This document shows, piece after piece, positions 4,035 to 17,128 of a stretch of DNA of 47,183 nucleotides; position 1 is the stretch's first letter, and every line of letters starts with the position of its first letter. The notes below the pieces were generated by a model. It was not told the DNA's origin. It was given only the letters and a program-made list of their open reading frames with translations, and did no database searches. The position numbers and the translations under genes are program-made. Origin of the DNA: Verrucomicrobiales bacterium (GTDB lineage: Bacteria; Verrucomicrobiota; Verrucomicrobiia; Verrucomicrobiales; DEV007); contig JAEUHH010000049.1 of the NCBI GenBank assembly GCA_016795505.1, positions 1 through 47,183 of the forward strand. The letters are read 5' to 3'.

Positions 4035-5438
4035 TCAGCTGATGTGATAGGCCGGAGCACCGTGTTCGGCCACATCCAGACCCTCGTGCTCTTCCTCTGC
4101 GCTGACGCGCACCCCCATCGTCACCTTGAGGATGATGAAGATGGCGAGCGAGGCGACAAACGCGAAGGCCGAGACCGACAGCGTGCCGATGAGCTGGGTG
4201 CCGAAGCTCTTCGTGCCGAAGATGGCCGGGGCCAGCGTGCCGAACACACCGCAGACGCCGTGTACGGAAACCGCACCGACCGGATCGTCGATCTTCAGCT
4301 TGTCCAGGAAGAGCACCGAAATCACCACGATTGCACCGGCGATGGCACCCGTTGCGACAGCGCCATAGGGTGAGATGTCGTCGGCACCGGCGGTGATGCC
4401 GACCAAGCCGGCGAGGATGCCGTTGAGCGACATGGAGAGGTCCGGCTTTTTCAGAACCACCCAGGAGGTAATCATAGCGGCGATACCGCCCGCAAAGCCC
4501 GCCATGGCGGTGGTGACGAAGACTCGGGAGACCGCCTGAGGATCAGCCGAGAGGACGGAGCCGCCGTTGAATCCGAACCAGCCGAGGAACAGCAGGAAGA
4601 CACCGATCGTCGCCAGAGGCAGGCTGTGGGGCAGGATGGGCTTCACGCCGTCCTTGGTGAACTTGCCCTTGCGCGGGCCGAGGATGATGATGGCCGCCAG
4701 AGCTGCAAAGCCGCCGAAGGCATGAACCAGGGTCGACCCGGCGAAGTCATGGAATCCCATGGTGTTCAGCCAGCCGTAGCCCCACTTCCAGGAACCGGTG
4801 ATGGGGTAGAAGAAAGTCACGAGCACCGTCGCATAGATCATGAAGCTCGTCAGCTTCACGCGTTCGGCGACCGCTCCGGAGACGATCGTCGCGGCCGTGG
4901 CGGCGAACATGGCCTGGAAGAGGAAGTCGGTCCAGTAGGTCATGGGACCGGTGGCGTAGGCGGTGGTCATGTTGGCCACCTGTCCTGCGTCATCGAAAGA
5001 ATTGGTGATCGGTTTCCCTAGGGCAAAGAAATCCTTCGAGACCCCGGCTTCCCAGCCTGGATACATGCCGTTGAACCCGTAGAACATGTAACCGAGCGCT
5101 CCGATGCAGACGATGAAGACGTTCTTGAACAGGATGTTCACCGTGTTCTTGCTCTGGCAGAGGCCTGACTCCACCGTGGCAAAGCCAAGGTGCATCAGGA
5201 ACACCAGCGCCGCGGCGATCATGATCCAGAGGTTGTTGGCGAGGAATCCCGCGTACTCCGGACCCGCTTTGAAGTCGTCATACGTGGCATAGGCCGGAGC
5301 ATCCGCAGCGGCCGGTGCTTCCGCAGCGGGGGCTTCGGCCGGGGGAGGGGCGTCCTGGGCGATGGCCCAGGTAGTGATCATCGGCAGGGCCAGGAGACCT
5401 GCCAGTATCCAGTTGCGAAGGTTGAATCGATGTTTCAT
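4035..5438 (-). CDS. Ammonium transporter (Amt family), variant lacking the first pore histidine
   Basis: A 467-residue Amt protein with a signal peptide (residues 1-27, cut after TWAIAQ), an Ala/Pro-rich linker, then about eleven membrane helices. Family marks are FATVESGLCQSKN near 86, DFAGSTLVHAFGG near 231 and FLGWFGFNGGS near 284. The second pore histidine is kept (His393, VSVHGVCG). The segment aligned with the first pore histidine reads YPITGSWKWG, placing Ser216 where the other transporter has His177. Some other Amt and Mep proteins also vary at this position, so the protein may still transport, perhaps with changed proton coupling or selectivity, or may act as a sensor. It is transcribed separately from a sigma-54 promoter at 5526-5540. 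Confidence 0.93.
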   Translation of the reverse strand: MKHRFNLRNWILAGLLALPMITTWAIAQDAPPPAEAPAAEAPAAADAPAYATYDDFKAGPEYAGFLANNLWIMIAAALVFLMHLGFATVESGLCQSKNTVNILFKNVFIVCIGALGYMFYGFNGMYPGWEAGVSKDFFALGKPITNSFDDAGQVANMTTAYATGPMTYWTDFLFQAMFAATAATIVSGAVAERVKLTSFMIYATVLVTFFYPITGSWKWGYGWLNTMGFHDFAGSTLVHAFGGFAALAAIIILGPRKGKFTKDGVKPILPHSLPLATIGVFLLFLGWFGFNGGSVLSADPQAVSRVFVTTAMAGFAGGIAAMITSWVVLKKPDLSMSLNGILAGLVGITAGADDISPYGAVATGAIAGAIVVISVLFLDKLKIDDPVGAVSVHGVCGVFGTLAPAIFGTKSFGTQLIGTLSVSAFAFVASLAIFIILKVTMGVRVSAEEEHEGLDVAEHGAPAYHIS

Positions 5439-5462
5439 TTTACTTTGTTAGTTAACGTTACG

Positions 5463-5504
5463 GCCGCTCCTGGTTTGTCCTACGAAACCGGGGGCGGCTT
5501 TTTT
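5463..5504 (+). promoter_or_regulatory. Hairpin in the amt leader, terminator-like on the plus strand
   Basis: On the plus strand a 14-bp stem (including G-T pairs) with an 8-base loop is followed by six T residues, the form of an intrinsic terminator. No plus-strand gene ends here. On the minus strand it lies inside the predicted 5' leader of the amt gene (start near 5514 to ATG 5438) and still pairs at 12 of 14 positions. It could end an antisense transcript of amt or form a structured leader. Both are inference. Confidence 0.5.
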
Positions 5505-5525
5505 GTTTCAGTCGCTCCCGTTTAA

Positions 5526-5540
5526 GCATCACCTGTGCCA
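5526..5540 (-). promoter_or_regulatory. Sigma-54 (-24/-12) promoter of second amt gene
   Basis: Reading the minus strand from 5540, the sequence is TGGCACAGGTGATGC. It has GG at -24 and GC at -12 at correct spacing, with one mismatch to the TTGC element. Transcription would start near 5514, about 76 bases before ATG 5438. Confidence 0.8.
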
Positions 5541-5754
5541 AGTTTTCGAAAAACTCGATGCGGGCTCGCAATTGGCTGATATTCAGGGGTCGTCTCGGCC
5601 GTCGGACCCGGATTGGTAAGGGGCGAATGGGTGGGGGCTGATAATTCAGGTTATGACGCCGAAGCAGTGGGGAGCCGGGGCTCCGGAGGGCAATTGGGGG
5701 CCTGAAACCACTTCACGACCGGTTGGCGGGTTGGGCGGGATTCCGGAGCAACCC

Positions 5755-6084
5755 GAATGGCACGGGATTAAGGGCGTCGGGTCGATTGCCCTGCCGATTG
5801 GATGCCGGAGGCATCACAGCCATTAGCCGGTGGTTGAGCGCAGCGATACCACCGGTCCATCCACCCGCATGTCGAGCATCCCAGAGGGATGCCAGCTGCT
5901 TGCCATTTCGCCTGCCGCCTCGCCCGCTGGCATCCCTCCGGGATGCTCGGTTTCCTTTCCATTTGATCCGGTGGTGTCGTCGCTACGCTGCTCAACCACC
6001 GGCTAATAGCTGTGATGCCTGCGGCATCTATTTCGCTCGAAACACCCATTTGGACCGAAGAGCCGTCTTAATCCCGTGGCATTC
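5755..6084. repeat. Nested inverted repeat built of REP-like hairpins (330 bp)
   Basis: This gene-free stretch is symmetrical. Outer arms: 5755-5774 with 6067-6084 (GAATGGCACGGGATTAAG and its near complement). Middle arms: 5801-5854 with 5967-6029. Inner arms: 5874-5896 with 5926-5948. Each arm is itself a small hairpin: GATGCCGGAGGCATC, CCGGTGGT..ACCACCGG and GCATCCCAGAGGGATGC. It has the form of paired REP elements facing each other. The rest of the gap (5541-5754 and 6148-6401) holds no supported gene. Confidence 0.85.
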
Positions 6085-6085
6085 C

Positions 6086-6147
6086 GATCAGACCCGGTTG
6101 GATCGGAGATGAGACCCGGTTGGATCGGCGAGGAAAGAGGGTGTGAT
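6086..6147 (+). repeat. 22-bp-period palindromic repeat, locus 1 (three units)
   Basis: Units begin at 6086, 6108 and 6129. The first two are 19-mers of the type GATCAGACCCGGTTGGATC separated by GGA or GGC. The third (GAGGAAAGAGGGTGTGATC) resembles the complement of the unit at 19798. The same family occurs at 19798, 27204, 38874 and 43261. Confidence 0.8.
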
Positions 6148-6401
6148 CGCGAAAGAGGAGCAGGAGCCCGGAACGCAACCCATGGAGGTCACCGGCGGCA
6201 ACCCCGGTCCGGCCGAACGAGCGCCGCAAGTGCTTGAAAAGTCGATATCCAGAACGATCCGGTTCGCCTGAGGCTTTGGAAAACCGAGATTCCCGATCGC
6301 ACAAAACACCAGCCCGCTCCGGGTGCAAAAGGGATTGACAGAGAGAGGGATGGGGATTCCGGTGATATCGTTATCGCTACCGCCGGGAGAAAAGCGGGGC
6401 G

Positions 6402-6424
6402 ATAGCGAAATCGGATAATATACT
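6402..6424 (+). other. Leader site directly before cassette array A (attI- or attC-remnant-like)
   Basis: The 18 bases CGATAGCGAAATCGGATA lie directly before the first core site of array A. The identical string precedes the first core site of array B on the minus strand (about 16411-16428). Here it is the right arm of an imperfect palindrome whose left arm is TATCGCTACCGC near 6371. A TAATAT motif at 6416 could serve as a -10 box, but no good -35 is visible. Whether it is an attI analogue, an old attC or a promoter is open. Confidence 0.5.
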
Positions 6425-6443
6425 GTTAGGCGGCATCACGCGT

Positions 6444-6806
6444 ATGGACAATTCCGACAAACCCACATTGTTCAGTCCCGGCGTTGGGAAGCGGGGCATG
6501 ACCCAGCTTCATTACGACGCCTATTGCGGAAATCTGGAGGGACTCATTTGGTGTTTGGAGCAGGGCATGGAGGTGAACGCCAGAGACACCTATCGCGGAT
6601 ACACGCCGACTCATTGGCTGGCAGACATGGCGGCAGTTGATGGGCCACGCTTGGAGATGTTGCGGGAGTTAGTTCGCCACGGCGCTGACATCAACGCGCA
6701 GACACCAGATGGGACGACACCGTTGATGCTTGCTCGTGCTGCCGGCAGTGATTTGGGTGATGCGCTTGCCACCGAGCTTGTCGCACTTGGAGCTAGAGAT
6801 TTATGA
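6444..6806 (+). CDS. Ankyrin-repeat protein (cassette A1)
   Basis: A 120-residue protein with about three ankyrin repeats: QLHYDAYCGNLEGLIWCLEQG near 20-40, a divergent repeat with YTPTHWLADMAA near 53-64, and VRHGADINAQTPDGTTPLMLA near 77-97. It has no signal peptide or membrane segment and is presumably a cytosolic protein-binding module. ATG 6444 lies 12 bases after the core site GTTAGGC, a typical distance in a cassette. The stop codon comes 13 bases before the inverse core at 6820. Target and function are unknown. The ankyrin call is firm; the cassette assignment rests on the flanking sites. Confidence 0.85.
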   Translation: MDNSDKPTLFSPGVGKRGMTQLHYDAYCGNLEGLIWCLEQGMEVNARDTYRGYTPTHWLADMAAVDGPRLEMLRELVRHGADINAQTPDGTTPLMLARAAGSDLGDALATELVALGARDL

Positions 6807-6819
6807 CGACACCAATGCC

Positions 6820-6915
6820 GCCTAACAACAAAACGGATGCAGGCAACAGCTCGAAGGCTATCTGCCGTGTCAGCAATGTCTTGCGCTCGCCGTCGCCTGA
6901 TCCGTGACGTTCTCG
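6820..6915 (+). other. attC-like site after cassette A1
   Basis: A 96-bp imperfect palindrome. The inverse core is GCCTAAC (6820-6826), the left inner arm ACGGATGCAGGC (6833-6844), the right inner arm GCCTGATCCGT (6895-6905) and the core GTTCTCG (6909-6915). The inner arms pair with one extrahelical base, as attC sites do. The inverse core matches the core at 6425, not the one at 6909, as expected if crossover occurs within the core. Confidence 0.7.
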
Positions 6916-6927
6916 CCTGAAATTGCT

Positions 6928-7311
6928 GTGACGACGCTAAAGCAAGACTCTTGGTGGATCCGGATCTACCGGTGGCCCTGTTCACTTTTTGTGGGCCTCT
7001 TGATTGGTTCATTAGCTGCATGCAGTTTTCTGCTCTGGGACAGCAAGCTCGAGGCATACCTTGAGCCGTTGGGAATGAAGCTTTTTCTCCTCGGTTGGAT
7101 TTTGATCATCGGCTCGTCCTTCGGATCTGGGAGGGAGAAACATTTGGCTCTTCCTGCGCCTTCCGTGTTTGAAACCCGTTTTAGAAGACTCGTTTTGGCA
7201 GCCGGATTCATTCTCAATCTCGTCGCGTGGATAGGACTCGAACAACCGCCCGAGAAACGGGGAGAACAAAACGCGGCTGGACAACCCGCTACACGCCTTG
7301 AGTCGAAATGA
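6928..7311 (+). CDS. Small three-helix membrane protein (cassette A2)
   Basis: A hypothetical protein of about 127 residues with three predicted membrane helices: LFVGLLIGSLAACSFLLW, LFLLGWILIIGSSFG and LVLAAGFILNLVAWIGL. No family recognised. The open frame also has GTG at 6904, but that lies inside the attC-like site. GTG 6928, 12 bases after the core site GTTCTCG, is preferred. The 3' end of the gene runs into the next attC-like site, so the last residues (AAGQPATRLESK) are encoded by the recombination site itself. The cassette B2 gene ends in nearly the same tail for the same reason. Function unknown; membrane location likely. Confidence 0.7.
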   Translation: MTTLKQDSWWIRIYRWPCSLFVGLLIGSLAACSFLLWDSKLEAYLEPLGMKLFLLGWILIIGSSFGSGREKHLALPAPSVFETRFRRLVLAAGFILNLVAWIGLEQPPEKRGEQNAAGQPATRLESK

Positions 7312-7387
7312 TCCGGGTAACATCAACCCTTAACCCCGTTGCCGCGTGGCGCTCCCGCTAGCGGGTCGCCAGCGCTCGACGTTCGGC
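7261..7387 (+). other. attC-like site after cassette A2
   Basis: A 127-bp imperfect palindrome. Inverse core GGAGAAC (7261-7267), left arm GCGGCTGGAC (7273-7282), right arm GTCGCCAGCGC (7365-7375), core GTTCGGC (7381-7387). A central stem pairs CCCGCTA (7285-7291) with TAGCGGG (7359-7365). Its left half closely resembles the site after cassette B2 (GCTGGACAACC..GGCTAC type, then GAGTCGAAATGA), and CTTAACCCCGT is shared with the site after cassette B1. The sites therefore form one family. Confidence 0.72.
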
Positions 7388-7388
7388 T

Positions 7389-7874
7389 ATGAAATTTAAG
7401 ATCGGGAAAGGTCGCTACGCCGATGTGGTATGGGACAATGCTAGCAAATGGATCGGTGAGGTTACAGAGAGCAACGCTTCAGAGCTAGCCTTGAATCCAA
7501 CCCAGCATTTCGAGACCTTGAAAGCAATGCTGCCAGGGGACTGGCAGGACTCGAACGTCGAAGGAAAGTTTCTTTCCGCTCTGGGCTTCTCGCTCGCTCG
7601 AGCAATCACATTAACCTCGAACTGGAGATTCGAGTTCGTTCTCTTTGAGGAGAGTAATTTCCGTTACGATGATGGAGTCTGGTCCATTGTGAGCGAAGAT
7701 TGTGGGACGCTCATCTTTCCGATTGGAATCCTGTATCGAGACTACTACAAGAAGACCCGTTTTTCCGGCCTCTATGCTGAGGCGATTTACTCTGGCCGCC
7801 ACCCGCGAAATCCGCCAAATTCGTTCATTGAATGGGAAATCAAACAAGCAGCCGAATCAGATCCCCGCGACTGA
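7389..7874 (+). CDS. Hypothetical protein (cassette A3)
   Basis: A 161-residue soluble protein with no signal peptide or membrane segment. It is rich in aromatic residues and probably mixed alpha/beta. No family or catalytic motif recognised. ATG 7389 lies one base after the core site GTTCGGC, a spacing typical of cassette genes that borrow signals from the core. Base composition is clearly more AT-rich than the neighbouring chromosomal genes, consistent with acquisition. The last codons overlap the degenerate attC-like site that begins at 7851. Confidence 0.75.
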   Translation: MKFKIGKGRYADVVWDNASKWIGEVTESNASELALNPTQHFETLKAMLPGDWQDSNVEGKFLSALGFSLARAITLTSNWRFEFVLFEESNFRYDDGVWSIVSEDCGTLIFPIGILYRDYYKKTRFSGLYAEAIYSGRHPRNPPNSFIEWEIKQAAESDPRD

Positions 7875-7905
7875 CTGAGCGTTCACCCAGCCAGCCGCGG
7901 ATCCC
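7851..7905 (+). other. Truncated attC-like site ending array A
   Basis: Inverse core GCCGAAT (7851-7857; one mismatch to the complement of core GTTCGGC at 7381). The inner arms are AGATCCCCGCGACTG (7859-7873) and CCAGCCGCGGATCC (7891-7904 region). No recognisable right-hand core follows, so the site looks decayed or cut. Confidence 0.5.
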
Positions 7906-8677
7906 ACAAAGGCTCCGCCGACCACGGGTCGTCGCAGCTACCTGCTTCGCATCCCTGCGCACGGCTCCGCACAGGGCGTTTCCCATCAGCCTCGCGCCAT
8001 TGGCCCGTAGGACTGCACGATCCAGATCGCTTTGACTCCGCTGCGCTCCGTCCATGCGGTCAGGCTTCGCCGGTGGTACGCCGCTGGCGCGGCAAGCCAT
8101 TCATGTGGGAACGCCCCTGTTTCTCAAGCCAACGGTGGTTCAACGCGGCACGCACGATCGGACCGAATAGCCGCGCCGGCGGCGAGCGGCCATAGACGGA
8201 GCGCAGCGGAGGCCGAAGGGTGAGGCGGCCACGTGGGGCCGCCGAATCAATTCTGGCCCATCCGCCAATAGACTTTGCGGCTGCTCGTCGCCCTGTGCAC
8301 CACGCTGGGATGGATTCCCAGCGCAAGGAGATTCCGGCGACGCGAAAAACAAGAAAAAGATGCTCGCGACCGCGGACGTGGCCGCCGATTTCGGCATTGA
8401 TCCCGCCACGGTCGACGCCTACGCGGCTCTGCTCGACGACTACACCGCCGTGCTGGTGGCGCCCCGCAGCGCAATCTCCGACCGGGTCGCCCAGGCAGAG
8501 GCGTGCCCGACCGGATGCGGGAATTGCGGGCGAAGTTCGCGGAACTCGACGCTCTGCCCCCCACCAATTCGCCATGACCGCGGCTGGAGCGGAGTTTGGC
8601 GCGCTTTTCCAGTCCGCCGGCCACATCATCGACTGCGGCAAAGGGCACGCCGGGAAGGCGATCCCGGATCGGGAGTT
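7906..8677. other. Gene-poor decayed stretch, possible pseudogene
   Basis: No intact gene can be supported. Around 8270-8600 there is a shadow of a broken gene. A hydrophobic, signal-like stretch (LLVALCTTLGWIPS, near 8280) lies in one frame. DVAADFGIDPATVDAYAALL follows in a second frame (from 8360), and MRELRAKFAELDALPPTNS in a third. This order would make sense as one small secreted protein broken by two frameshifts. Family unknown, and the reading is tentative. Confidence 0.3.
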
Positions 8678-8752
8678 AGTTCAAAGTTCAAAGTTCAAAG
8701 TTCAAAGTTCAAAGTTCAAGGTTTGAAGTTCAACGTTGGGAGTTTGGAGTTT
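8678..8752 (+). repeat. Heptamer tandem repeat (GTTCAAA type), locus 1
   Basis: Six or so copies of a 7-bp unit (AGTTCAA) run without interruption and then grade into variants (GTTTGAA, AGTTTGG). Similar arrays occur at 23011 and, inverted, at 23527. Confidence 0.9.
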
Positions 8753-8839
8753 GAGGATGCTGCGTTTGGGGCTGGACTTCGCCGGGTGTTTTTTCCGAAT
8801 GGGGGCTTTTGACCGGTTTTCGGATTTCATGGCTTGGAT

Positions 8840-9028
8840 CTAGGATTGGGGTTTTCCGCCATCGGGCGGCGATCCGGCTGATTTTTTCCAATCGAGTCCC
8901 TGATCGAACTGCTTGAGCAATGAAGGGAAGAACAACTCGCTCAGGCCCGCCAGGAGGGAGAATGCGAGGATGGCGACGGTCTGCTCTTGCCCCTGCTGGG
9001 TGACGAGAAAGCCGAAGATCACTTTTGC
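8840..9028 (-). pseudogene. In-frame 3' continuation of the membrane-protein gene beyond an amber codon
   Basis: After the TAG at 9029-9031 the same frame stays open for about 62 more residues: AKVIFGFLVTQQ, then AILAFSLLAGLSELFFPSLL, and a polar tail ending GGKPQS. It completes the membrane helix cut by the stop and adds one more hydrophobic segment. It therefore looks like the true end of the upstream gene, separated by one point mutation. Confidence 0.65.
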
Positions 9029-9832
9029 CTAGATCAGCAACTGAACGGTGAACCCGGAGACGACGCCGACGAACCAGCGCAGAAGGGCCTCCAAGTTGTG
9101 CAGAAAGCGCCCGGCAGTGGCATCGAAGGGGATCTGACGATTGAAGCTCACATAAGATACCAGAGCCCCGACGCCTCCCAACAGGGCTCCGAGCAGCCAC
9201 ATTTGGGGAGATGCGGGCTCGGGAGGGCTCCCCCAGCGGGCCATCAGGATGAAAAAGGCGACCAAGCAAGTGGCGGAGAGCAGACCGAAGGGCACCAACA
9301 GCCAGCGCCGGGAGTACTCGATGGACCGCTGGGAGATCCACTTCTCTGCGGTGTCGAGTATACCCGTCGCAGCAGGCAGGGAATTGGTGCTCAAAAGCCG
9401 GGCCATGCCTTCGGCAATGAGGCGGCGGGCGGCAAAGAGGGATTTCTCGGACTCCCGACCCAATCTCGTCGTCTCTTGGTCCGTTGATTTACGAAAGGAC
9501 CCGATCCATCGAGATACGGACCCCATCCGGCGCGACATTTTTCCATGGCGTAGGAAGAATGACCGAATCTCCAACTCGGCGACTCGATTGGAGACCTGAT
9601 CATAGCTATCCGCATCCACATCACCGAAGGCGCCTCCCCACTGCACGCTCCCGAACTCATCCAGAAATACAATGAAGTGGTCTGTCTTGAGGATCAGTTC
9701 TTCGATCCGACGGCCGATCCCGTCATAGGTATCCCCTTCCAAAAAATCCATCATCCTTTTGCCGGGTGGCAGCTCTCCCTCTACAGCGGCAAGGCTGGCG
9801 GCTTCGTATGCGATTCGGTCTTCGGTCTCCAT
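9029..9832 (-). CDS. Membrane protein of unknown function, probably cut short by an amber codon
   Basis: A polar N-terminal region of about 165 residues is followed by membrane helices near WLLVPFGLLSATCLVAFFIL, MWLLGALLGGVGALVSYV and WFVGVVSGFTVQLLI. The last helix stops abruptly at TAG (9029-9031), and the frame continues with hydrophobic sequence to 8840. The original protein was therefore about 330 residues. A TTG at 9871 extends the frame, but ATG 9832 (METEDRIAYEAAS) is the better start. No family recognised. No tRNA-like or SECIS-like element is visible to support recoding, so a nonsense mutation or a sequencing error is the simplest reading. Confidence 0.6.
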   Translation of the reverse strand: METEDRIAYEAASLAAVEGELPPGKRMMDFLEGDTYDGIGRRIEELILKTDHFIVFLDEFGSVQWGGAFGDVDADSYDQVSNRVAELEIRSFFLRHGKMSRRMGSVSRWIGSFRKSTDQETTRLGRESEKSLFAARRLIAEGMARLLSTNSLPAATGILDTAEKWISQRSIEYSRRWLLVPFGLLSATCLVAFFILMARWGSPPEPASPQMWLLGALLGGVGALVSYVSFNRQIPFDATAGRFLHNLEALLRWFVGVVSGFTVQLLI

Positions 9833-10112
9833 GGGACGAGTTTTAGCAGGAATCTCACCCGATGGAAGCAAAATGCGCGGAGAATCCCCGCCTGCTGATC
9901 CGAGACCATTCTGGAAACTATATTTGGGTCGGTAGCATTTTTTTCTTTTCGATCATTTCCCAATCGCATAAGAGAAGGCAGACGAACGCGGAGGGACCCG
10001 GAGTGTTTGACAGATGGAGCACCGGCTCCAGGGATCAGCACGCGGTGGCTTTCCACCTGCGTTAGCGGAATCTATCAGCCACCTCATAAAGACTCGGAGT
10101 AGCCCCCAGCCC

Positions 10113-10640
10113 ATGTCTGATCCCGTCGTCCAACTGATCGTCTCGCCCAATGAACCGTGGGTCTCCACGGACATTCTGCTCGCCGAAGGGGACCGCATCC
10201 GCATCACCGCAGTGGCCGACGGGAAGTATGCTGACAAGGGACTCGCCTGCGATGCCAATGGCCCCTTGGGCAAAAAGGGTCGGCTCTTTGACCGCTGGTT
10301 CCGGAATCCGGGCCCCCTGAGCCCGATCCGCTGGACACCGGGATTCGGAGCCATCAGGCATCTGCGGGTGCTGCAGGATCGCGACGGGAGGCGCGCGTCG
10401 TTTCTCACGTTGATCGCAGCCATCGGCCGCGATGATGCGGAGTCGAATGTCCGAGTGGTCGGCTCGGGAGCTGATCTGATTGCCCACCGGGCTGGTCCAC
10501 TTTTTCTCTTTGCGAATGACTGGCCGGGCGGGGTCGGAGAAAAGGACGATGCGCGCTTTTTCGACGCCGACGGCCACTTGTCGAAGACTTACTCCAATAA
10601 TGAGGGCTCGCTCTCGGTGACGATCGAGCGATTGGCCTGA
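10113..10640 (+). CDS. Small beta-rich protein with a PA-IL-lectin-like segment
   Basis: A 175-residue protein. Near residue 10, PNEPWVSTDILLAEGDRIRIT resembles the opening of PA-IL/LecA-like galactose-binding domains, which begin with a wanted-state phrase (W..T.I.L..GD.V.I.A.G). Residues 113-170 could be the second half of such a beta sandwich (GPLFLFANDWPG). The frame is open from 10014, but similarity begins at MSDPVVQLIV, so ATG 10113 is chosen. No signal peptide. It lies 49 bases before the S8 protease gene on the same strand and may be co-transcribed. Carbohydrate binding is a tentative reading from pattern alone. Confidence 0.6.
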   Translation: MSDPVVQLIVSPNEPWVSTDILLAEGDRIRITAVADGKYADKGLACDANGPLGKKGRLFDRWFRNPGPLSPIRWTPGFGAIRHLRVLQDRDGRRASFLTLIAAIGRDDAESNVRVVGSGADLIAHRAGPLFLFANDWPGGVGEKDDARFFDADGHLSKTYSNNEGSLSVTIERLA

Positions 10641-10689
10641 TAGCCGCCCCTTTTTCCGATTCCAACCTCAATCCCAACCTCAATCTGTC

Positions 10690-12750
10690 ATGCCTACCCA
10701 TCCATCTTCCAACGGACTGCTGAAACCCATCCGCAAGATCTTGAACCGCCTGCTGTTGGGCATACCAGGAGACATCAAGAACGATCCGGAACTGCGGGCG
10801 CGAGTCATCGTCCTCGCTGATCTGGCTTTGGTCAGTGAATTCCCTCCGGCCCGGGCGGTGCCCACGAAGATTCGCCAGCGGCTGATCGCGGGCGCGCTGG
10901 ATGCCATCCTGGGCGGCAGTCAGCCGGATGCGGAGACGGCACCTTTGGTGGAAATCGCAGCGGCGGCGGGAGCCGAGGCAGAGGTAGGCGAAGCCGAGCC
11001 CCGGACGTATGGGGTGACGAGCTTTCTGGTGGACGGGGAGTCGTCCGATCTCTCTGCCATGGAAGCAGCGGCGACCCGGGTGCTGGGCGAAGGCTGGAAG
11101 GTGGCGGCCATGGAGAATGACGCCACCGGCTTTACCATCTCCCATCCGGAGGCCGACCTGTCAGTGACGGAAGCCTGGGAGTTGGCTCACCAACTGGAGG
11201 AAGATCCAGCTGTGGCTTTGGCAGAGCCGGACATCGAGTGGGTGCCGGCGCCAGCAGATATTGGTGGCCCGGCCGCGCCGCCGGCTCCGGCGATGATGAT
11301 GGCAGCCGCCGCCGCGGACAAGCATCTGAGCTGCTCGGGCAGTCACTCGTGGAGTGTCGATGAGATTTCTCTTTCTGGCGCCTGGGGGGCTTCGCCCGAG
11401 GACAAGAAACACGGCCGAGGCGTCAAAGTAGGACATTTGGATACGGGCCTGACTGACCATATCCACCAGCGTCTGAACGATCCGCGGATCCTCCTTGCTG
11501 AGGGTGCCAATCTCTACGACCCCGACCACCCCAATCCGGCGATCGGCAATCGGCCGCTGGACCCGATGGATTCGGATCTGGACGATGCGCTGAAGGTGAA
11601 GTTCAAGACATTCGACGGCCACGGCACCAGTACGCTGAGCGTGCTGCTCTGCGATACAGGGCCAGTGACTGGGACAGCTCCGGCGGTAACGGTGGTGCCT
11701 TTCCGGATCGGTCCCACAGTGGTGCATTTTAATGTGAAACGGATCGCGGAAGGCATCCGGCGGGCGCATCGCCAGGGGTGCGATGTCATCACGATGAGTA
11801 TGGGAGGCCCTCCGTCCCGAACGGGCACCATGGAGCGAGCGGTCCGGGATGCGGTGGAAGATGGCGTGATCATCTGCTGCGCCGCCGGGAATGTCATCGG
11901 GTCGAATGATCTGACGCCTATCGTGGTCTGGCCAGCCGCCTTGGATGAAGTGATCGCCGTGGCCGGATCGAATTGTCGCCGGCTTCCTTGGTCGGGATCT
12001 TCGCGCGGGCCGGAAGTCAACATCACCGCTCCCGCCCAGGATGTCTGGCGTCTGAGCGCGAGCAAAGACTATCTGAACGGCCATCCCGGACAGTCGGCAG
12101 CGCGGGGTGAGGGCACCTCCTACGCCACGCCAGCCACGGCCGGAGTGGCAGCCTGCTGGCTTGCGAGACATGGAGGACGTCAGGCACTCGCCGCGCACTA
12201 CGGGCATCCTCGATACGTCCCCCAGGCTTTTGCCCACATCTTGAGGACGGAGGGATATGACGAGCAGCCCGATTGGAACACCAAGCTGATGGGGCCGGGC
12301 ATTTTGAATGCCGAAAAGGTTCTCAAGGCAGATTTACCCCCGAAATCAGCCCTGAACGGCTGGCCCAAGAAAAAGCACACCATCAGCAGCAACGTGATCT
12401 CCGGGATTTTTAAACTGGGTCATTGGCTGACGCCTTGGAAGAACAAACCCGCCATGGCCGGAATGGCTGCCGCCGCAGAGGTGAAACCCGCCACCTTGAA
12501 GTCTGCTGAAACTCTGTCACAGCGATATGGCAGCGAGGTGGCATACCTGCTGTTCGACCGGCCGGAGTTGCTCAAGCAGTTGGTCGAATCCGGCTTGCTG
12601 GACAGCCCGGTGGCCAAGCAGTCCAGTTCCCCCGCCGGCATGGCCGCGGCGGCCCCGGCTCCGAACAGCAGTCGCCTGTCCTCTGCGGCCGAGGCGCTCG
12701 AAGCACTGCGGGAGGTGGCCTCCCCCTCTCTCGCTGCCGCGCTACCCTGA
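10690..12750 (+). CDS. S8 family serine peptidase (subtilisin-like)
   Basis: A 686-residue protease. The catalytic triad is visible: Asp251 (VGHLDTGLTD), His311 (FDGHGTSTLS) and Ser476 (GEGTSYATPAT). The oxyanion Asn is Asn401 (CCAAGN). The N-terminal 190 residues contain an inhibitor-like propeptide region (FTISHPEADLS..ALAEPDIEW, near 148-184), followed by a Pro/Ala linker. The C-terminal 190 residues beyond the catalytic domain are Ala-rich and end with KQLVESGLLDS and an Ala-rich tail. There is no Sec or Tat signal peptide, so the protein is either cytosolic or exported by another route. It sits between the lectin-like gene and the amidase gene on one strand with short spacers. Confidence 0.9.
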   Translation: MPTHPSSNGLLKPIRKILNRLLLGIPGDIKNDPELRARVIVLADLALVSEFPPARAVPTKIRQRLIAGALDAILGGSQPDAETAPLVEIAAAAGAEAEVGEAEPRTYGVTSFLVDGESSDLSAMEAAATRVLGEGWKVAAMENDATGFTISHPEADLSVTEAWELAHQLEEDPAVALAEPDIEWVPAPADIGGPAAPPAPAMMMAAAAADKHLSCSGSHSWSVDEISLSGAWGASPEDKKHGRGVKVGHLDTGLTDHIHQRLNDPRILLAEGANLYDPDHPNPAIGNRPLDPMDSDLDDALKVKFKTFDGHGTSTLSVLLCDTGPVTGTAPAVTVVPFRIGPTVVHFNVKRIAEGIRRAHRQGCDVITMSMGGPPSRTGTMERAVRDAVEDGVIICCAAGNVIGSNDLTPIVVWPAALDEVIAVAGSNCRRLPWSGSSRGPEVNITAPAQDVWRLSASKDYLNGHPGQSAARGEGTSYATPATAGVAACWLARHGGRQALAAHYGHPRYVPQAFAHILRTEGYDEQPDWNTKLMGPGILNAEKVLKADLPPKSALNGWPKKKHTISSNVISGIFKLGHWLTPWKNKPAMAGMAAAAEVKPATLKSAETLSQRYGSEVAYLLFDRPELLKQLVESGLLDSPVAKQSSSPAGMAAAAPAPNSSRLSSAAEALEALREVASPSLAAALP

Positions 12751-12819
12751 ACGAACCAACGCTGGCCGATTTTCATTCCAACCAACCCATCACTCCCAAA
12801 CCCAATCAACAAAGACCAA

Positions 12820-13977
12820 ATGAGCCAACCAACCATCCACAGCCGCACCGAATGGGGTGCCACCAAAGCCCGTGAGGATGCCTTCGCCCAGGGCGACGCC
12901 CGAGGCATCATTCTCCACAACATGGAAAATGCCAATCGCACTCCCGGCGCCACCGCCGAGGCTGAAACAGCCGCCGCTTACAAGGTCTCCCGGGACTGCC
13001 AAGACTTCCACATGCGCCCGAAGTCCAAAAAAGGCAATGGCTGGTCGGACATCGGCCAGCATTGGACCATCAGCCGGGGCGGCGTGATCATGGAGGGCCG
13101 CCTGGGCACGCTCAGTGCGGCAGAGGCCGGCAAAGTCGTGCGAGGCGCTCATGCGAACTCGGCCACCTACAACCAGCATTGGTTCGGGATCGAGATGGAG
13201 GGCAACTACGTCAAAAGCGATGTGCTGACCGACTCCGCATGGGAGGCTCTCGTCGCCCTCTGCACGTGGCTGTCGGAGAAAGCCGGAAGTCAGGAATGTC
13301 TGCCCATCCTCCCGCATCGCGATGTCCGGGACACCGATTGTCCAGGAAAGCTCGCCGACCGGCTCCCCACCCTCACGAAGGCGGTGAATGATCGCCTTTC
13401 GAAATCGAGCCCATCCGCGTCTCTCGCCAAAGGCGCCAAGAAGAAATCCCCCTCCCTCGCTGCCGCCAAAGCGTCATCTGCCAAGAAGGCTGCTGCCAAA
13501 AAGGCTACCGCGTCAGCCACATGCTCCACCGGTTGGTACACGACAGGATACTACTCCCCTGCAGAGTCCGACTTTTCCGGCCCGCGTTTCGAAGTCAACA
13601 TTCGCGATCATGGACGGGAAGCGTTTCCGGGAGCTTTCCTCGATGCCGTGAAGATGGAGGGTTGGGGCAAGACCCGATTCGGCTGGTATCTGGGACGATA
13701 CAGCAACGCCTGGCACAAGAGCCCGTCCCCGCTGGATGCCAAAGGAAAGGCTCTCGTGGTGGGAGCCATCGCGGTCGATCCCGACCTGATCCCGTTCGGA
13801 TCGAAGGTGACGATCCCCTCGCTCCCGTCACCCTGGAACACCAAAAGCTTTCTCGCCAAAGACGTCGGTAGCGCCATTCAGGGTAAGCACATCGACATCT
13901 ATTGCGGCGAGGGTATTTCAGCCGAGCAGGCCACCTTTCAGGTGACCGGGCATAATCGGCAGGTGTGCGTCGAATAA
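12820..13977 (+). CDS. N-acetylmuramoyl-L-alanine amidase with C-terminal 3D domain
   Basis: A 385-residue cell-wall enzyme with two modules. Residues 1-185 form an Amidase_2/PGRP domain with zinc ligands His33 (IILHNMEN), His166 (LPHRDVRD) and Cys174 (TDCPG). Residues 195-232 are a Lys/Ala/Ser-rich linker resembling a histone tail. Residues 240-385 form a 3D domain of the MltA/YabE type, with the acidic motif AKDVGSAIQGKHIDIY (Asp348, Asp359). It would cleave the amide between MurNAc and L-Ala; the second domain may act on glycan. No signal peptide, as in many phage-type endolysins. The starting ATG follows the protease stop by 69 bases. Its 3' end abuts the left copy of the 389-bp repeat. 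Confidence 0.88.
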   Translation: MSQPTIHSRTEWGATKAREDAFAQGDARGIILHNMENANRTPGATAEAETAAAYKVSRDCQDFHMRPKSKKGNGWSDIGQHWTISRGGVIMEGRLGTLSAAEAGKVVRGAHANSATYNQHWFGIEMEGNYVKSDVLTDSAWEALVALCTWLSEKAGSQECLPILPHRDVRDTDCPGKLADRLPTLTKAVNDRLSKSSPSASLAKGAKKKSPSLAAAKASSAKKAAAKKATASATCSTGWYTTGYYSPAESDFSGPRFEVNIRDHGREAFPGAFLDAVKMEGWGKTRFGWYLGRYSNAWHKSPSPLDAKGKALVVGAIAVDPDLIPFGSKVTIPSLPSPWNTKSFLAKDVGSAIQGKHIDIYCGEGISAEQATFQVTGHNRQVCVE

Positions 13978-13991
13978 GCCGGGCAAGGAGC

Positions 13992-14380
13992 CGAGCGGCC
14001 CATGGCAAGGCACGGTCCTCCACGGAATGCGGGGATTCTGAAACCGATCCGTGAGACTCGTCTTTTCGGCGAGTTGAATCGCCTTTCCCATCGGTCCTGG
14101 GTCCGTGCCTTCCGTGAAATCCGTGGGCCTCTCTTTCTGGATTCTGGCTCAGTTGTTAAACCCGCCCTTGTACAGCACCAACTGCCGGTCGCTGAAGAAC
14201 ATCTCATAGATCGGCAGTCCGCCGCCCGCCACGCTGCCGACACCGATGCCGGAGGCGCCGCCGCTCCCGATGGTGCCGGGGAAAAACGACAGGCCGACGA
14301 GGCTCTGGACGCCCGACTGGGCAAAGGCGGCGCCTTTCCGCTGGAGGACGAAGGGCTTGCGAAAGCCGTTCGCATCAGTG
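13992..14380. repeat. 389-bp direct repeat, left copy
   Basis: Aligns without gaps to 16740-17128 with about ten substitutions (roughly 97% identity by eye). It comprises a 3' flank and the last 77 or so codons of the FG-GAP gene at 16897. The two copies enclose cassette array B. Confidence 0.92.
14149..14380 (-). pseudogene. Truncated copy of the 3' end of the FG-GAP protein gene
   Basis: Encodes, in frame, the terminal segment of the protein at 16897-19671: from DANGFRKPFVLQRKG through the glycine-rich SGGASGIGVGSVAGGG to YKGGFNN and the stop. Upstream of 14380 the similarity ends abruptly, and no start or signal peptide belongs to it. It is a dead fragment created by the 389-bp duplication. 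Confidence 0.85.
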
Positions 14381-14570
14381 AAAAGGCAAGCCCAAAAAAG
14401 AAAAATTTTCCCAGGCGGGTTGTTCGGGGAGTGGCTGGGGGAGTCAGCCGCCGAGGGAGGCAAGGCCCGAAGTCAGACAAAAGGAACAGCGGACGTGACC
14501 CGACGTTTCGGCACCGATGGTTCGACCCTCTTATTCAGTGACTTTGACTGGGACGATTCTTTCGCGGCCA

Positions 14571-14700
14571 AAAGAACGTCCAAGGTCTGGCACCGGCTAC
14601 CGGCGGCGCGCCTTCGACTGCGGGTTGAGGGTTGTAGCTACGGAATTCATTTCGACTCGGAGCGGGTAGCCGGTTGTCCAGCACCACCTTGTTGTTCTGC
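14571..14700 (-). other. attC-like site after cassette B2
   Basis: A 130-bp imperfect palindrome. Inverse core GCAGAAC (14700-14694), a left inner arm containing GTGCTGGAC, a right inner arm containing GTGCCAGACC, and a final core GTTCTTT (14577-14571). A central stem pairs CCGGCTACC with GGTAGCCGG. The left half is homologous to the site at 7261 and supplies the stop codon of the cassette gene. Confidence 0.7.
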
Positions 14701-15846
14701 CCTTGATTTTGCGTAAAGGCGCCGAAGCTCCTGTTGGGCCTCCTCCATAGGAGGTGGATCCGATGCTCCCCCAAGAATCATTCGGTAGCCACTCTCAGTC
14801 GGGATGACCTCTATACTGCTACCCCCATTGTTGTCTTGGATTTCGATCTTACCCCCTCCGCAGACGCGGAGGAGAATCTCAACAAGGTTATCCTTGGCGC
14901 CATTCTTCGCCAGCGGCAAGGAGCTGATACATGCCTCTACTGCGATAGCCTCCTCTCTCGCTCCCCATGCTTTCAAGTCCAAGAGATCCTGCTCGTTCAG
15001 GAGAATGTGATTCAGAAGGGAACGAATCTTGAGGGTTCCTTCGTGCATCTCCTGAACCAGTTGGGTGAATAGCTTTGGATCTGGCGTCTCCCTGACTGTC
15101 TGAATTGCTGCCGAAAGGTGCTTCAAATCCGGGTCATCTGGATGCTCATCAGCCAAAATCAAATCCCTTAGCGGCTGGGGATAGCGCTGCCGCTTTCGTG
15201 ATGTCTCCGCTTCCTCGGCAGCGAACTTGTCCGCGCCAGAAAGGTAGATCTCGCGTTCCTTCTGGCTGCTGGGATCAGCCGGTCGCAGTTCGCCCCTCCA
15301 AATGCGCAGTGTGTTTACTTGCGTAATTCCTTCCGCTCGCTGCTCCTCATTGAATAAAGTATGCGCAAATACGCTAATGTATGTAAGGCGACTCTCAGCG
15401 GACGGGCTGAAGCAAACCCAAGAGTGAGAACTATGCATCCCCTTTGGGCCTCCCCATCCCGAAAAGCCGGGCTGTCCAGTTCCGAGCAGTTCCTGGATCT
15501 CGGCAACCGTGGAGCAAGAGCGAAGCTTCTCATTGGTAGGAATTGATTTGACGTAAACCGGAGCGTCACTTCCCAGATAGCTTCCATTTGGGTATGTCCG
15601 GAGAAGCACGATCTCGCCCTCCATGATGCGCGCCTTCTCCAATCTCATTCGCTCAATCTTGCCATCCTCGTCTGTGACATCACCGATCCAATCGTGGGCA
15701 AGAGAACGTGTGTCCATTGCGACATCGGCATCGGCCTGCACCTTGGCGAGCATCTCGCGGAGCGTGGTAGTTTCGTCTGCGGCAGCGGGTAAGAGCAAGA
15801 ATGCTCCGACAACTCCGAGAAACGTCGTGAGAATCGAGTGCTTCAT
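14647..15846 (-). CDS. Secreted protein of unknown function (cassette B2)
   Basis: A 399-residue protein with a clear signal peptide (MKHSILTTFLGVVGAFLLLPAAADE, in two parts: charged start and hydrophobic core). The mature part is hydrophilic and mostly helical, with no recognised domain. ATG 15846 is preferred to the upstream ATG 15870 because the latter lies inside the attC-like site; 15846 follows the core site GTTCTGC by five bases. The tail AGQPATRSESK is encoded by the downstream recombination site and nearly equals the tail of cassette A2. At 1.2 kb the gene is large for a cassette. Function unknown; periplasmic or outer location likely. Confidence 0.75.
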   Translation of the reverse strand: MKHSILTTFLGVVGAFLLLPAAADETTTLREMLAKVQADADVAMDTRSLAHDWIGDVTDEDGKIERMRLEKARIMEGEIVLLRTYPNGSYLGSDAPVYVKSIPTNEKLRSCSTVAEIQELLGTGQPGFSGWGGPKGMHSSHSWVCFSPSAESRLTYISVFAHTLFNEEQRAEGITQVNTLRIWRGELRPADPSSQKEREIYLSGADKFAAEEAETSRKRQRYPQPLRDLILADEHPDDPDLKHLSAAIQTVRETPDPKLFTQLVQEMHEGTLKIRSLLNHILLNEQDLLDLKAWGAREEAIAVEACISSLPLAKNGAKDNLVEILLRVCGGGKIEIQDNNGGSSIEVIPTESGYRMILGGASDPPPMEEAQQELRRLYAKSRAEQQGGAGQPATRSESK

Positions 15847-15851
15847 TTTTG

Positions 15852-15980
15852 GCAGAACGTAAAAGCGCATGCACCCCTACCAGCGGGGGCGCACGTCGAT
15901 CACGGGGTTAAGGTTGCAATCACTAGAAATCATGGAAATAGGGCGGCTGGTAGGGGTTGTCATGTCGCGGCTTGTTCTGC
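15852..15980 (-). other. attC-like site after cassette B1
   Basis: A 129-bp palindrome with perfect ends: GCAGAAC (15980-15974) and GTTCTGC (15858-15852). Inside, AGCCGCGACATG pairs with GCATGCGCT. A strong central stem pairs CCCCTACCAGC with GCTGGTAGGGG. The segment CCTTAACCCCGTG is shared with the site at 7261. This is the clearest attC-like site in the window. Confidence 0.78.
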
Positions 15981-16391
15981 CTGAATTTTATTGAGGAACC
16001 AGCCTTCCGCATCGCACTCAAACTCCTCATCGCGAAAGTAAAAAAGGTAGTGCTTGGAGGTCTCTAAAGGCTCAACGCGCGAGTTCCAATCTCCGGGAAT
16101 CTGCTCGAGTAGAAGATTCCCAGAAACCTCGTAAAACTTGCCCCATGCTGGTGCTATCCGACTAAACCGGCACTGTCCGCGATACCAGCCTTCATCGTTC
16201 ACAGATCCGAATCGAAAACGAGAGCAACTGAGGAATGTAATCCCAGTGACGATCCCACTGGCTTTGTCGGGCTCGTAGAAGCCGGGACGAAATGAAAGGT
16301 GTAGATTCTCGCCATCCCATCGAGCCTTCGGGTCTGGAGCATTGGGCTCAGCGTTCCAGCCGTCGTTGAGCTGTTTGAAGTATGTGCTCAT
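15960..16391 (-). CDS. Hypothetical soluble protein (cassette B1)
   Basis: A 143-residue protein beginning MSTYFKQLNDGWNAEPNAP, rich in aromatic and acidic residues (EGWYRGQCRFS, GKFYEVSG, YLFYFRDEEFECDAEGW). It is probably a small beta-barrel or beta-sandwich. No signal peptide or membrane segment. I do not recognise a characterised family, though this style of protein is common among cassette genes. ATG 16391 follows the core site GTTCTGC by five bases. The last residues (AEQAAT) are encoded within the attC-like site. Composition is more AT-rich than the chromosome around it. Confidence 0.75.
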   Translation of the reverse strand: MSTYFKQLNDGWNAEPNAPDPKARWDGENLHLSFRPGFYEPDKASGIVTGITFLSCSRFRFGSVNDEGWYRGQCRFSRIAPAWGKFYEVSGNLLLEQIPGDWNSRVEPLETSKHYLFYFRDEEFECDAEGWFLNKIQAEQAAT

Positions 16392-16403
16392 TTGTAGCAG
16401 AAC

Positions 16404-16469
16404 AGTGCGATATCCGATTTCGCTATCGGTCGCGATGTTCAGCGAGCGGCGGAGCCGATTCGCTGTAAC
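16404..16469 (-). other. Leader site directly before cassette array B, with palindromes
   Basis: On the minus strand CGATAGCGAAATCGGATA precedes the first core of array B, as in array A. Here it is the centre of a 45-bp palindrome: GAAC, then GCGACCGAT / ATCGGATATCGC, then GTTC, the form of a very short attC. A second hairpin adjoins it (16437-16469, GTTACAGCGA / TCGCTGAAC). These may be remnants of empty cassettes or of the original attachment site. Confidence 0.5.
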
Positions 16470-16674
16470 GAGCCAGATTTTAGCGGCCTTGGAAAAACGC
16501 CGTCAAGCCCTAAAATCTTTGAAACACCGCCTCCGCCTCGCGTCCTCCCCAACCACTCCCCTCTCACCTCACCCAGCGCCCCATCCGCCCTCTCCCGCGC
16601 CTACCGACCGCGCCCCGGCTCCGTTGTTCCAACGACTGGCCCCGGCCTGGGCGGCTCGGTCGCCAACTCACCCC
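16470..16674. other. Intergenic stretch, nothing recognised
   Basis: A pyrimidine-rich run (CCTC/CCAC type) fills most of this 205-bp segment. No gene, promoter or RNA could be supported. Confidence 0.4.
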
Positions 16675-16740
16675 TCACGGAATCTCCAGCGCGGTGATCT
16701 CGGCGGGTGAGAGGGCGCGGTCGAAGACGGCGATCCCGTC
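16675..16740 (-). pseudogene. C-terminal remnant of a LamG-type domain gene
   Basis: The minus strand reads LDGIAVFDRALSPAEITAL, then EIP and a stop. This is the typical last strand of concanavalin-A-like/LamG domains (DEVAIFDRALS..EI). The coding similarity stops exactly where the right copy of the 389-bp repeat begins, so the rest of the gene was lost at that junction. Confidence 0.6.
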
Positions 16741-17128
16741 GAGCGGCCCACGGCAAGGCACGGTCCTCCACGGAATGCGGGGATTCTGAAACCGATCCGT
16801 GAGACTCGTCTTTTCGGCGAGCCTAATCGCCTTTCCCAGCGGTCCTGGGTCCGTGCCTTCCGTGAAATCCGTGGGCCTCTCTTTCTGGATTCTGGCTCAG
16901 TTGTTAAACCCGCCCTTGTACAGCACCAACTGCCGGTCGCTGAAGAACATCTCATAGATCGGCAGTCCGCCGCCCGCTACGCTGCCGACGCCGATGCCGG
17001 AGGCGCCGCCGCTCCCGATGGTGCCGGGGAAAAACGACAGACCGACGAGGCTCTGGACGCCCGACTGGGCAAAGGCGGCGCCTTTTCGCTGGAGGACGAA
17101 GGGCTTGCGAAAGCCGTTCGCATCGGTG
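16740..17128. repeat. 389-bp direct repeat, right copy
   Basis: The original copy, since it contains the intact 3' end of the FG-GAP gene (stop at 16897) and its 3' flank. Matches 13992-14380 without gaps. Confidence 0.92.

What the first reader, a model, noticed from the sequence alone, without database searches (positions are those of the whole stretch)
6425..7905. Integron-like gene cassette array (A) with no integrase
Three small AT-rich genes (ankyrin protein, three-helix membrane protein, hypothetical) alternate with palindromic sites. Each cassette opens with a core (GTTAGGC, GTTCTCG, GTTCGGC) and ends with an inverse core matching the complement of its own opening (GCCTAAC exact; GGAGAAC and GCCGAAT with one mismatch). 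In known integrons this follows from the crossover point within the core. No integrase gene is in the window. Verrucomicrobial cassette arrays are little studied.
Basis: partly seen in the sequence, partly recalled or inferred. Interest (0 to 1): 0.85.

Follow-up and report, generated by a model that had tools for sequence, protein, structure and literature searches.

The report
Integron arrays sharing scattered landing sites
The stretch is a real integron gene-cassette array with its own landing site, and the same genome assembly carries at least 14 such landing sites scattered about but no recognisable integron integrase, which is unusual because integrons are normally described with one landing site beside one integrase.

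Summary
6425-7905 is a cassette array: attC sites 6820-6915 and 7261-7387 score E 1.4e-23 and 4.1e-34 with covariance models. Both sites helped build those models, but the models also hit arrays beside real integron integrases in relatives. Cassette starts and inverse cores covary (55 of 56 variable bases in 14 cassettes; 0 of 100,000 permutations). The finding is larger than reported. The array starts at an attI-like site (6400-6427). A second array (14571-16428, minus strand) starts with the same core. The genome has 14 such sites with two unrelated kinds of flank and different DNA after each. Congeners' attI sites beside intI share the crossover ACT-G|TT and a TGATATC palindrome. No intI was found in the 96.6%-complete assembly, only a 32-residue intI remnant beside one site; this absence is weak evidence because many arrays lie at contig ends. 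Best reading: an attI module without integrase that multiplied, its arrays filled by an IntI acting in trans or since lost. New variant of a known kind.

The parts
6072..6427 (+). type-1 leader unit, about 350 bp, one of 7 in the genome; ends at the crossover core
   Evidence: BLAST of leader flanks and own-genome DNA search
6335..6340 (+). TTGACA, also seen in congeners' attI leaders; no complete sigma-70 promoter by the consensus scan
   Evidence: negative scan
6362..6377 (+). imperfect palindrome GTGATATCGTTATCGC; perfect GTGATATCGATATCAC in two other type-1 leaders (L009/L057 and L015/L055); TGATATC palindromes in the attI regions of 3 congeneric intI loci
6400..6427 (+). attI-like core of array A, CGATAGCGAAATCGGATA-ATAT-ACTGTT; crossover inferred between 6425 and 6426
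6426..6909 (+). cassette A1, ankyrin-repeat ORF 6444-6806
6820..6915 (+). attC of cassette A1 (inverse core GCCTAAC, bulged base in L'')
   Evidence: model R1 E 1.4e-23 in the own genome (a training site); fold
6910..7381 (+). cassette A2, ORF listed as 6904-7311 (its first GTG lies before the cassette border, so the real start is probably further in)
7261..7387 (+). attC of cassette A2
   Evidence: model R2 E 4.1e-34 (a training site); fold
7382..7907 (+). cassette A3, ORF 7389-7874, no Pfam family
7851..8037 (+). terminal attC-like site, also in L057, L058, L059 and L062, plus 3' flank shared with L057, L058 and L059 (not L062), although the last ORFs differ; no GTT on its right
16401..16428 (-). 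attI-like core of array B, same 18-mer and ACTGTT as array A, type-2 leader
16477..16506 (-). promoter-like TTGACG-18-TAAAAT pointing into array B; similar hexamers in the other type-2 leaders
15960..16391 (-). cassette B1 ORF (143 aa, no Pfam hit)
15852..15980 (-). attC of cassette B1
   Evidence: model R2 E 1.4e-12, not a training site; fold z -4.17
14647..15870 (-). cassette B2 ORF (407 aa, no Pfam hit)
14571..14700 (-). attC of cassette B2
   Evidence: model R2 E 5.2e-37 (a training site)

Best explanation
Arrays A and B are integron cassette arrays, each headed by its own attI-like landing site, and they are 2 of at least 14 such sites in this genome. Inferred mechanism: an integron integrase (IntI) takes the folded bottom strand of a circular cassette's attC and joins it to the double-stranded attI core at ACT-G|TT; the newest cassette then lies next to the leader, and in type-2 leaders a promoter-like site reads into it. 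The attI module (about 350 bp for type 1, about 77-120 bp common to type 2) lacks intI. It has multiplied, in one place in tandem, and its copies have collected different cassettes from an IntI acting in trans. That IntI has either been lost (a remnant survives beside one copy) or lies in the unassembled part of the genome. Shown: attC sites, attI homology, copy number, different contents. Inferred: recombination in trans, order of events, expression.
For: attC models: R1 hits 22 of 57 genomes at E<=1, of which 16 at E<=0.01; R2 hits 42 of 57 at E<=0.01, own genome included in each. R2 finds attC in 8 of the 17 intI loci given to it (17 of 20 such loci), 3 beside the G001 intI and 1 beside the G003 intI. 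Core and inverse-core covariation. Leader core: 13 sites at <=3 mismatches to 24 fixed bases, 0 for the reversed-pattern control, 0 in 56 relatives, about 0.003 expected. A 14th was found because an attC hit pointed to its contig; a relaxed scan returns all 14 among 18 matches, control 0. Type-1 and type-2 flanks are unrelated (mean 14.2 of 60 bases alike) while their cores agree at 23.2 of 28. The 380 bases after the core of 15 leaders (14 plus one decayed copy; one has only about 135 bases) show no similarity to each other at E<=1e-3. Congeners' attI beside intI: ACTGTT at the expected place in 6 of 23 intI loci, several of them cut short upstream; TGATATC palindromes in 3 congeneric loci and 1 other. 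intI remnant upstream of leader L058, reading away from it: 22 of 32 residues, 40.8 bits against at most 31.2 in 200 resampled sequences. Orphan attI with the congeners' core and no intI in the DNA fetched: G002 (1), G003 (2), the G003 ones followed by attC.
Against: Within a leader type the 28-bp core is hardly better conserved than its flank (0.888 v 0.837, core higher in 13 of 21 pairs; 0.825 v 0.807, 11 of 21), so selection on it is not demonstrated. Only 12 of 14 cores keep ACTGTT. Of 35 attC hits in the genome (4 of them weak, E 8e-4 to 0.01) 16 follow a leader, 12 lie where the upstream part is off the contig or near its end, and 7 have no leader in the stretch fetched. R1 hits none of the 3 congeners. 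No complete promoter was found in leader A. The intI remnant is next to only 1 leader. No recombination was observed.
Confidence: 0.82

Rival explanations
1. An intI exists and the assembly hides it: arrays broke across contigs or intI was left out, so the integrase-less look is an artefact. The many attI copies would still be real.
For: Contigs end 135-1036 bases after 4 of the leaders (C12, C31, C67, C51), and C94, C49, C67, C62 and C98 carry attC near their ends. 24 of 57 genomes searched have IntI over the cut-off, congeners G001 and G003 among them. IntegronFinder 2.0's authors find that draft genomes inflate CALIN counts (PMC9024848, passages); metagenome-assembled genomes lose repetitive and foreign DNA (PMC9723686, passages). 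Whether this genome is such an assembly is not stated by the tools.
Against: The own genome gave no intI-like match beyond the level of ordinary recombinases (best 81.5 bits, cut-off 265), though intI pieces do show in other fragmented genomes of the set. tblastn with four congeneric IntI over the window and L054-L063 (13 of the 14 leaders) found only the L058 remnant.
Confidence: 0.5
2. Relics: several separate integrons each lost intI by decay, leaving attI-headed arrays that no longer move.
For: Congener G001 has three intI over the cut-off. The L058 remnant, a decayed leader without the crossover on C3 and two altered cores.
Against: Copies of type 1 share about 350 bp without intI homology, longer than the 230-290 bp between intI and crossover in the two congeners read, so the unit that multiplied seems to have lacked intI already. 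First-cassette DNA differs between leaders, and 13 of 14 cassettes keep all four variable core bases matched.
Confidence: 0.35
3. CALINs made by off-target insertion at ordinary genomic attG sites, without real attI.
For: Known route (Loot et al. 2024, recalled; one search shows the paper is not held, and one search shows it only in a reference list). It fits the 7 attC hits without a leader.
Against: attG targets would not be expected to share a 28-bp core plus 77-350 bp of leader at 14 places, with features of congeners' attI.
Confidence: 0.05
4. Not an integron: a dispersed repeat with chance palindromes.
For: The leader is a repeat by any measure; folding energies of A1 and A2 are not extreme.
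Against: Model hits beside intI in relatives and core covariation.
Confidence: 0.02

Closest known systems
CALIN, cluster of attC sites lacking an integrase (Cury et al., as summarised in PMC8618304, passages)
   Same: attC-bounded cassettes without intI nearby
   Different: each of these arrays is headed by an attI-like site with a leader, and the heads form a family of 14
[quoted passage not shown]
   Same: an attI at the head of an array without integrase
   Different: two attI copies with intI present there; 14 copies with two kinds of flank and no intI found here
Sedentary chromosomal integron (recalled)
   Same: similar attC sites across many cassettes, mostly unknown genes; G040 shows such an array beside intI
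   Different: here spread over many short arrays
Delta-attI-type cassettes of class 1 and 2 integrons (PMC12901181, passages)
   Same: extra attI sequence away from the intI-attI platform
   Different: there a mostly truncated attI replaces the attC behind a gene; here leaders stand in front of arrays
Integron remnants of Treponema phagedenis (PMC3607928, passages)
   Same: attC and cassettes left after intI loss
   Different: no multiplied attI in the passages I saw

Membership tests
integron cassette array | attC sites: paired R and L arms, bulged base, AAC and GTT cores | tested here: met
   the fold of 1 of 10 sites (L062) is not the expected one
integron cassette array | start core complementary to own inverse core | tested here: met
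   13 of 14 cassettes 4/4, one 3/4
integron cassette array | cassettes in one direction, mostly one gene each | tested here: met
   array A 3 plus-strand ORFs, array B 2 minus-strand ORFs
complete integron | attI at the head of the array | tested here: met
   by homology and position, not by assay
complete integron | intI adjacent to attI | tested here: not met
   genome-wide; tblastn around 13 of 14 leaders: one 32-residue remnant only
complete integron | promoter Pc reading into the array | tested here: inconclusive
   promoter-like site in leader B, none in leader A
CALIN | at least 2 attC without intI within reach | tested here: met
   array A 2 sites plus a terminal one, array B 2; no intI on the contig
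CALIN by attG insertion | no shared attI-like sequence at the insertion points | tested here: not met
functional integron | IntI-mediated recombination | not testable with these tools
   needs an assay

The most novel reading that the evidence does not exclude
A distributed integron: attI plus its leader has become an integrase-free module that multiplied to 14 or more chromosomal places (one in tandem), turning one integron into many parallel landing sites served in trans by a single IntI, so that many cassettes could sit in first position at once. Orphan attI sites in two congeners suggest that the uncoupling of attI from intI is older than the species.
Probability: 0.4. Interest if true: 0.8.

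Novelty: new variant of a known kind. Interest (0 to 1): 0.62.

Why it matters
Integrons are described with one attI per integrase; [quoted passage not shown] If attI can be copied without intI and still receive cassettes, many clusters now filed as integrase-less leftovers may be active landing sites run from a distance, and the expressed first position need not be limited to one array. The 14 leaders and their arrays also give a natural data set for defining attI outside the well-known classes.

Tried and rejected
Rfam holds nothing that matches at its gathering scores; a permissive scan of 5400-17000 gave 5 sub-threshold hits, one of them (RyhB, E 0.76) over attC A1, taken as chance. A hand-made attC finder missed several sites; covariance models replaced it. 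The models in turn miss the L059 site found by hand and the terminal sites. A joint alignment of 11 attC sites misaligned the arms, and B1 misaligned in the five-row one, so R1 rests on 3 sites and R2 on 4. The genome searches score only the best candidates per genome (75, 61 and 150), so attC counts are lower bounds. The exact 19-base leader pattern gave 1 hit in the genome collection, a deltaproteobacterial MAG; about 1.9 are expected by chance (hand arithmetic) and R2 finds no attC in that locus, so it was treated as chance; the tool may leave out records of the own genome. Viral contigs: 0. In one search, 4 of 18 matches (C8, C9, C63, C116; 2 mismatches, no ACTGTT; about 3.4 expected by hand arithmetic) were dropped. 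The C3 copy at 119686 was kept out of the 14 because it lacks the crossover. That XerC, XerD or the other tyrosine recombinases of this genome drive the arrays was not pursued: they lie on C100, C88, C95 and C72, none of which carries one of the 14 leaders; the two best score just under NCBI's XerD and XerC cut-offs, and one of the two C72 frames was not scanned. Selection on the core within leader types was sought and is weak. A literature search for several attI per genome matched 353 papers, the 20 listed being unrelated ones on 'attitude'; a search for the LexA motif in this group found nothing, so the TGTTC-N4-GAACA boxes before relatives' intI are named from recall. (listings) and the passages read showed at most two attI in one genome or integron; this covers only the open library.

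Full report
What was checked. The stretch 6425-7905 holds three small ORFs in one direction, separated by imperfect palindromes. In 14 cassettes from 8 arrays of this genome the four variable bases of the inverse core match the cassette's own start at 55 of 56 positions; random pairing gives 34.3 on average, at most 49, and never 55 in 100,000 trials. These 14 are the cassettes whose two ends I read; those of leader C98:113302 and of several other arrays were not tabulated.

attC test. I built two covariance models: R1 from 3 sites (6820-6915 and two elsewhere in the genome), R2 from 4 sites (7261-7387, 14571-14700 and two elsewhere). Hits on those sites are expected. The independent results are these. 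R1 hits 22 of 57 genomes at E<=1 (16 at E<=0.01; own included), with 12-24 hits each in G054, G050, G045, G056 and G038, and hits contigs that also carry intI: G050:C220, G028:C36, G054:C16 and, with an interrupted intI, G045:C30; it hits none of the 3 congeners. R2 hits 42 of 57 at E<=0.01, all three congeners among them; in single-contig G040 a run of hits from 2,268,741 follows an intI at 2,267,125-2,268,069. Given 17 of the 20 short intI loci, R2 finds attC in 8; it finds none in the deltaproteobacterial locus L064. It also finds 3 beside the G001 intI and 1 beside the G003 intI. Site B1 in the window, not used for R2, scores E 1.4e-12. As single-stranded DNA 9 of 10 bottom strands fold into a long hairpin; energies are well below shuffles for 6 of 10 sites and not for 4, A1 and A2 among these.

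The missing piece: attI. Array A is preceded by CGATAGCGAAATCGGATA-N4-ACTGTT at 6400-6427. The same 24 bases stand at 16401-16428 on the minus strand, at the head of a second array with attC sites at 15852-15980 and 14571-14700. In the whole assembly 13 places match with at most 3 mismatches, none for the reversed pattern, none in 56 relatives, against about 0.003 expected. A 14th (C76:1025) came to light because R2 put an attC there; a relaxed scan returned those 14 plus 4 others judged unrelated. Of the 14, 12 keep ACTGTT, C3:109110 has ACTGTC and C98:113302 has TCTGAT. A further copy on C3 (119686) has lost the crossover.

Two kinds of leader. Seven copies (type 1) share about 325-350 bp before the crossover, seven (type 2) about 77-120 bp; some pairs share 300-970 bp. 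The two kinds are unrelated outside the core: on average 14.2 of the 60 bases just before it agree, about what chance gives, while the cores agree at 23.2 of 28. Behind the core, the next 380 bases of 15 leaders (the decayed copy included; only about 135 bases for one) show no similarity to each other in DNA or translated searches at E<=1e-3; further down, attC families recur. Within a type the core is only slightly better conserved than its flank (core higher in 13 of 21 and 11 of 21 pairs), so I do not claim proven selection. Type-2 leaders carry a TTGAC and TAAAAT-like pair; leader A has TTGACA but no full promoter by the scan.

Why this is attI. In the same genus G001 and G003 have intI with attC arrays. 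Their leaders contain TGATATCGATATCA and TTAATACTGTTAGTGC (G001) and TGATATCA and AATAAAGACTGTTAGGGC (G003). ACTGTT stands at the expected place in 6 of 23 distinct intI loci examined, some of which are cut short upstream, and TGATATC palindromes in three loci of the genus and one outside it. Type-1 leaders have a TGATATC-like palindrome (perfect in two) and ACTGTT. G002 and G003 also hold attI sites with the congeners' core but no intI in the DNA fetched (1 and 2 sites); the two of G003 are followed by attC, while the G002 contig ends some 640 bases beyond. So attI without intI is not confined to this genome; 14 copies were seen only here.

Integrase. TIGR02249 gives nothing over its cut-off in the own genome (best 81.5 bits, cut-off 265; it rings at that low level in all 14 control genomes too). 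The tyrosine recombinases present are closest to XerD and XerC plus three others. Upstream of leader L058, reading away from it as intI should, lies a 32-residue stretch 69% identical to a congener's IntI (40.8 bits; 200 resampled sequences reach at most 31.2). The type-1 unit is longer than the attI-intI distance in the congeners and shows no intI homology, so what multiplied was probably already free of intI. The assembly is 96.6% complete in 120 contigs, and many arrays sit at contig ends; a missing intI is therefore possible.

How it probably works. By established integron biology (recalled; also PMC8618304, passages), IntI joins a folded attC to attI and new cassettes enter next to attI. 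Here each of at least 14 attI copies would be such a place. Shown here: sites, homology, numbers, different contents. Inferred: action in trans, timing, expression. Of 35 attC hits in the genome (8 with R1, 27 with R2, no overlap, 4 weak), 16 lie behind a leader, 12 at or near contig ends where the upstream part is missing, 7 without a leader in the stretch fetched.

What is known. Clusters of attC without intI are common, and one report gives an attI to both an integron and a CALIN in a Shewanella prophage (PMC9892861, section read). I found no report of many attI copies in one genome in the searches (one search was a poor query), which cover only the open library. Hence 'new variant of a known kind'.

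Noticed in passing
window 7851-8037; ends of the arrays in L057, L058, L059, L062: Five arrays end in the same attC-like site although their last ORFs are unrelated, and four of them (not L062) share the 3' flank as well; the shared part starts right after the variable inverse core (xxxxAA). Insertion at the usual crossover does not explain this; it looks as if TTxxxx-ORF-xxxxAA were exchanged as a unit.
   Followed up: partly
C98:103000-117007 (L055): Leader-array units stand in tandem: leader 113302 with 4 attC hits, then leader 109695 with 2, and 2 more attC hits upstream near the contig end.
   Followed up: partly
window 13992-14380 and 16740-17128: A 389-bp direct copy (379 of 389 identical, from the alignment score) flanks array B; part of it is the 3' end of the large minus-strand ORF 16897-19671, as if array B had come in with a duplicated gene end.
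   Followed up: no
window 6400 and 16428; C3:109110 and 119686: In both places a type-1 and a type-2 leader face each other about 10 kb apart; the C3 type-2 copy has lost its crossover.
   Followed up: no
L058 about 8500-8740; L057 upstream of its leader: What look like 21-bp tandem repeats next to the intI remnant, and matches spaced by 21 bp upstream of leader L057.
   Followed up: no
window 5870-5960: By eye, inverted repeats of the GGCATCCCTC-GGGATGC kind between an ammonium-transporter-like gene and leader A.
   Followed up: no
L081, L044 in front of intI: Exact TGTTC-N4-GAACA boxes before relatives' intI genes, which would fit SOS control; the motif is recalled.
   Followed up: no
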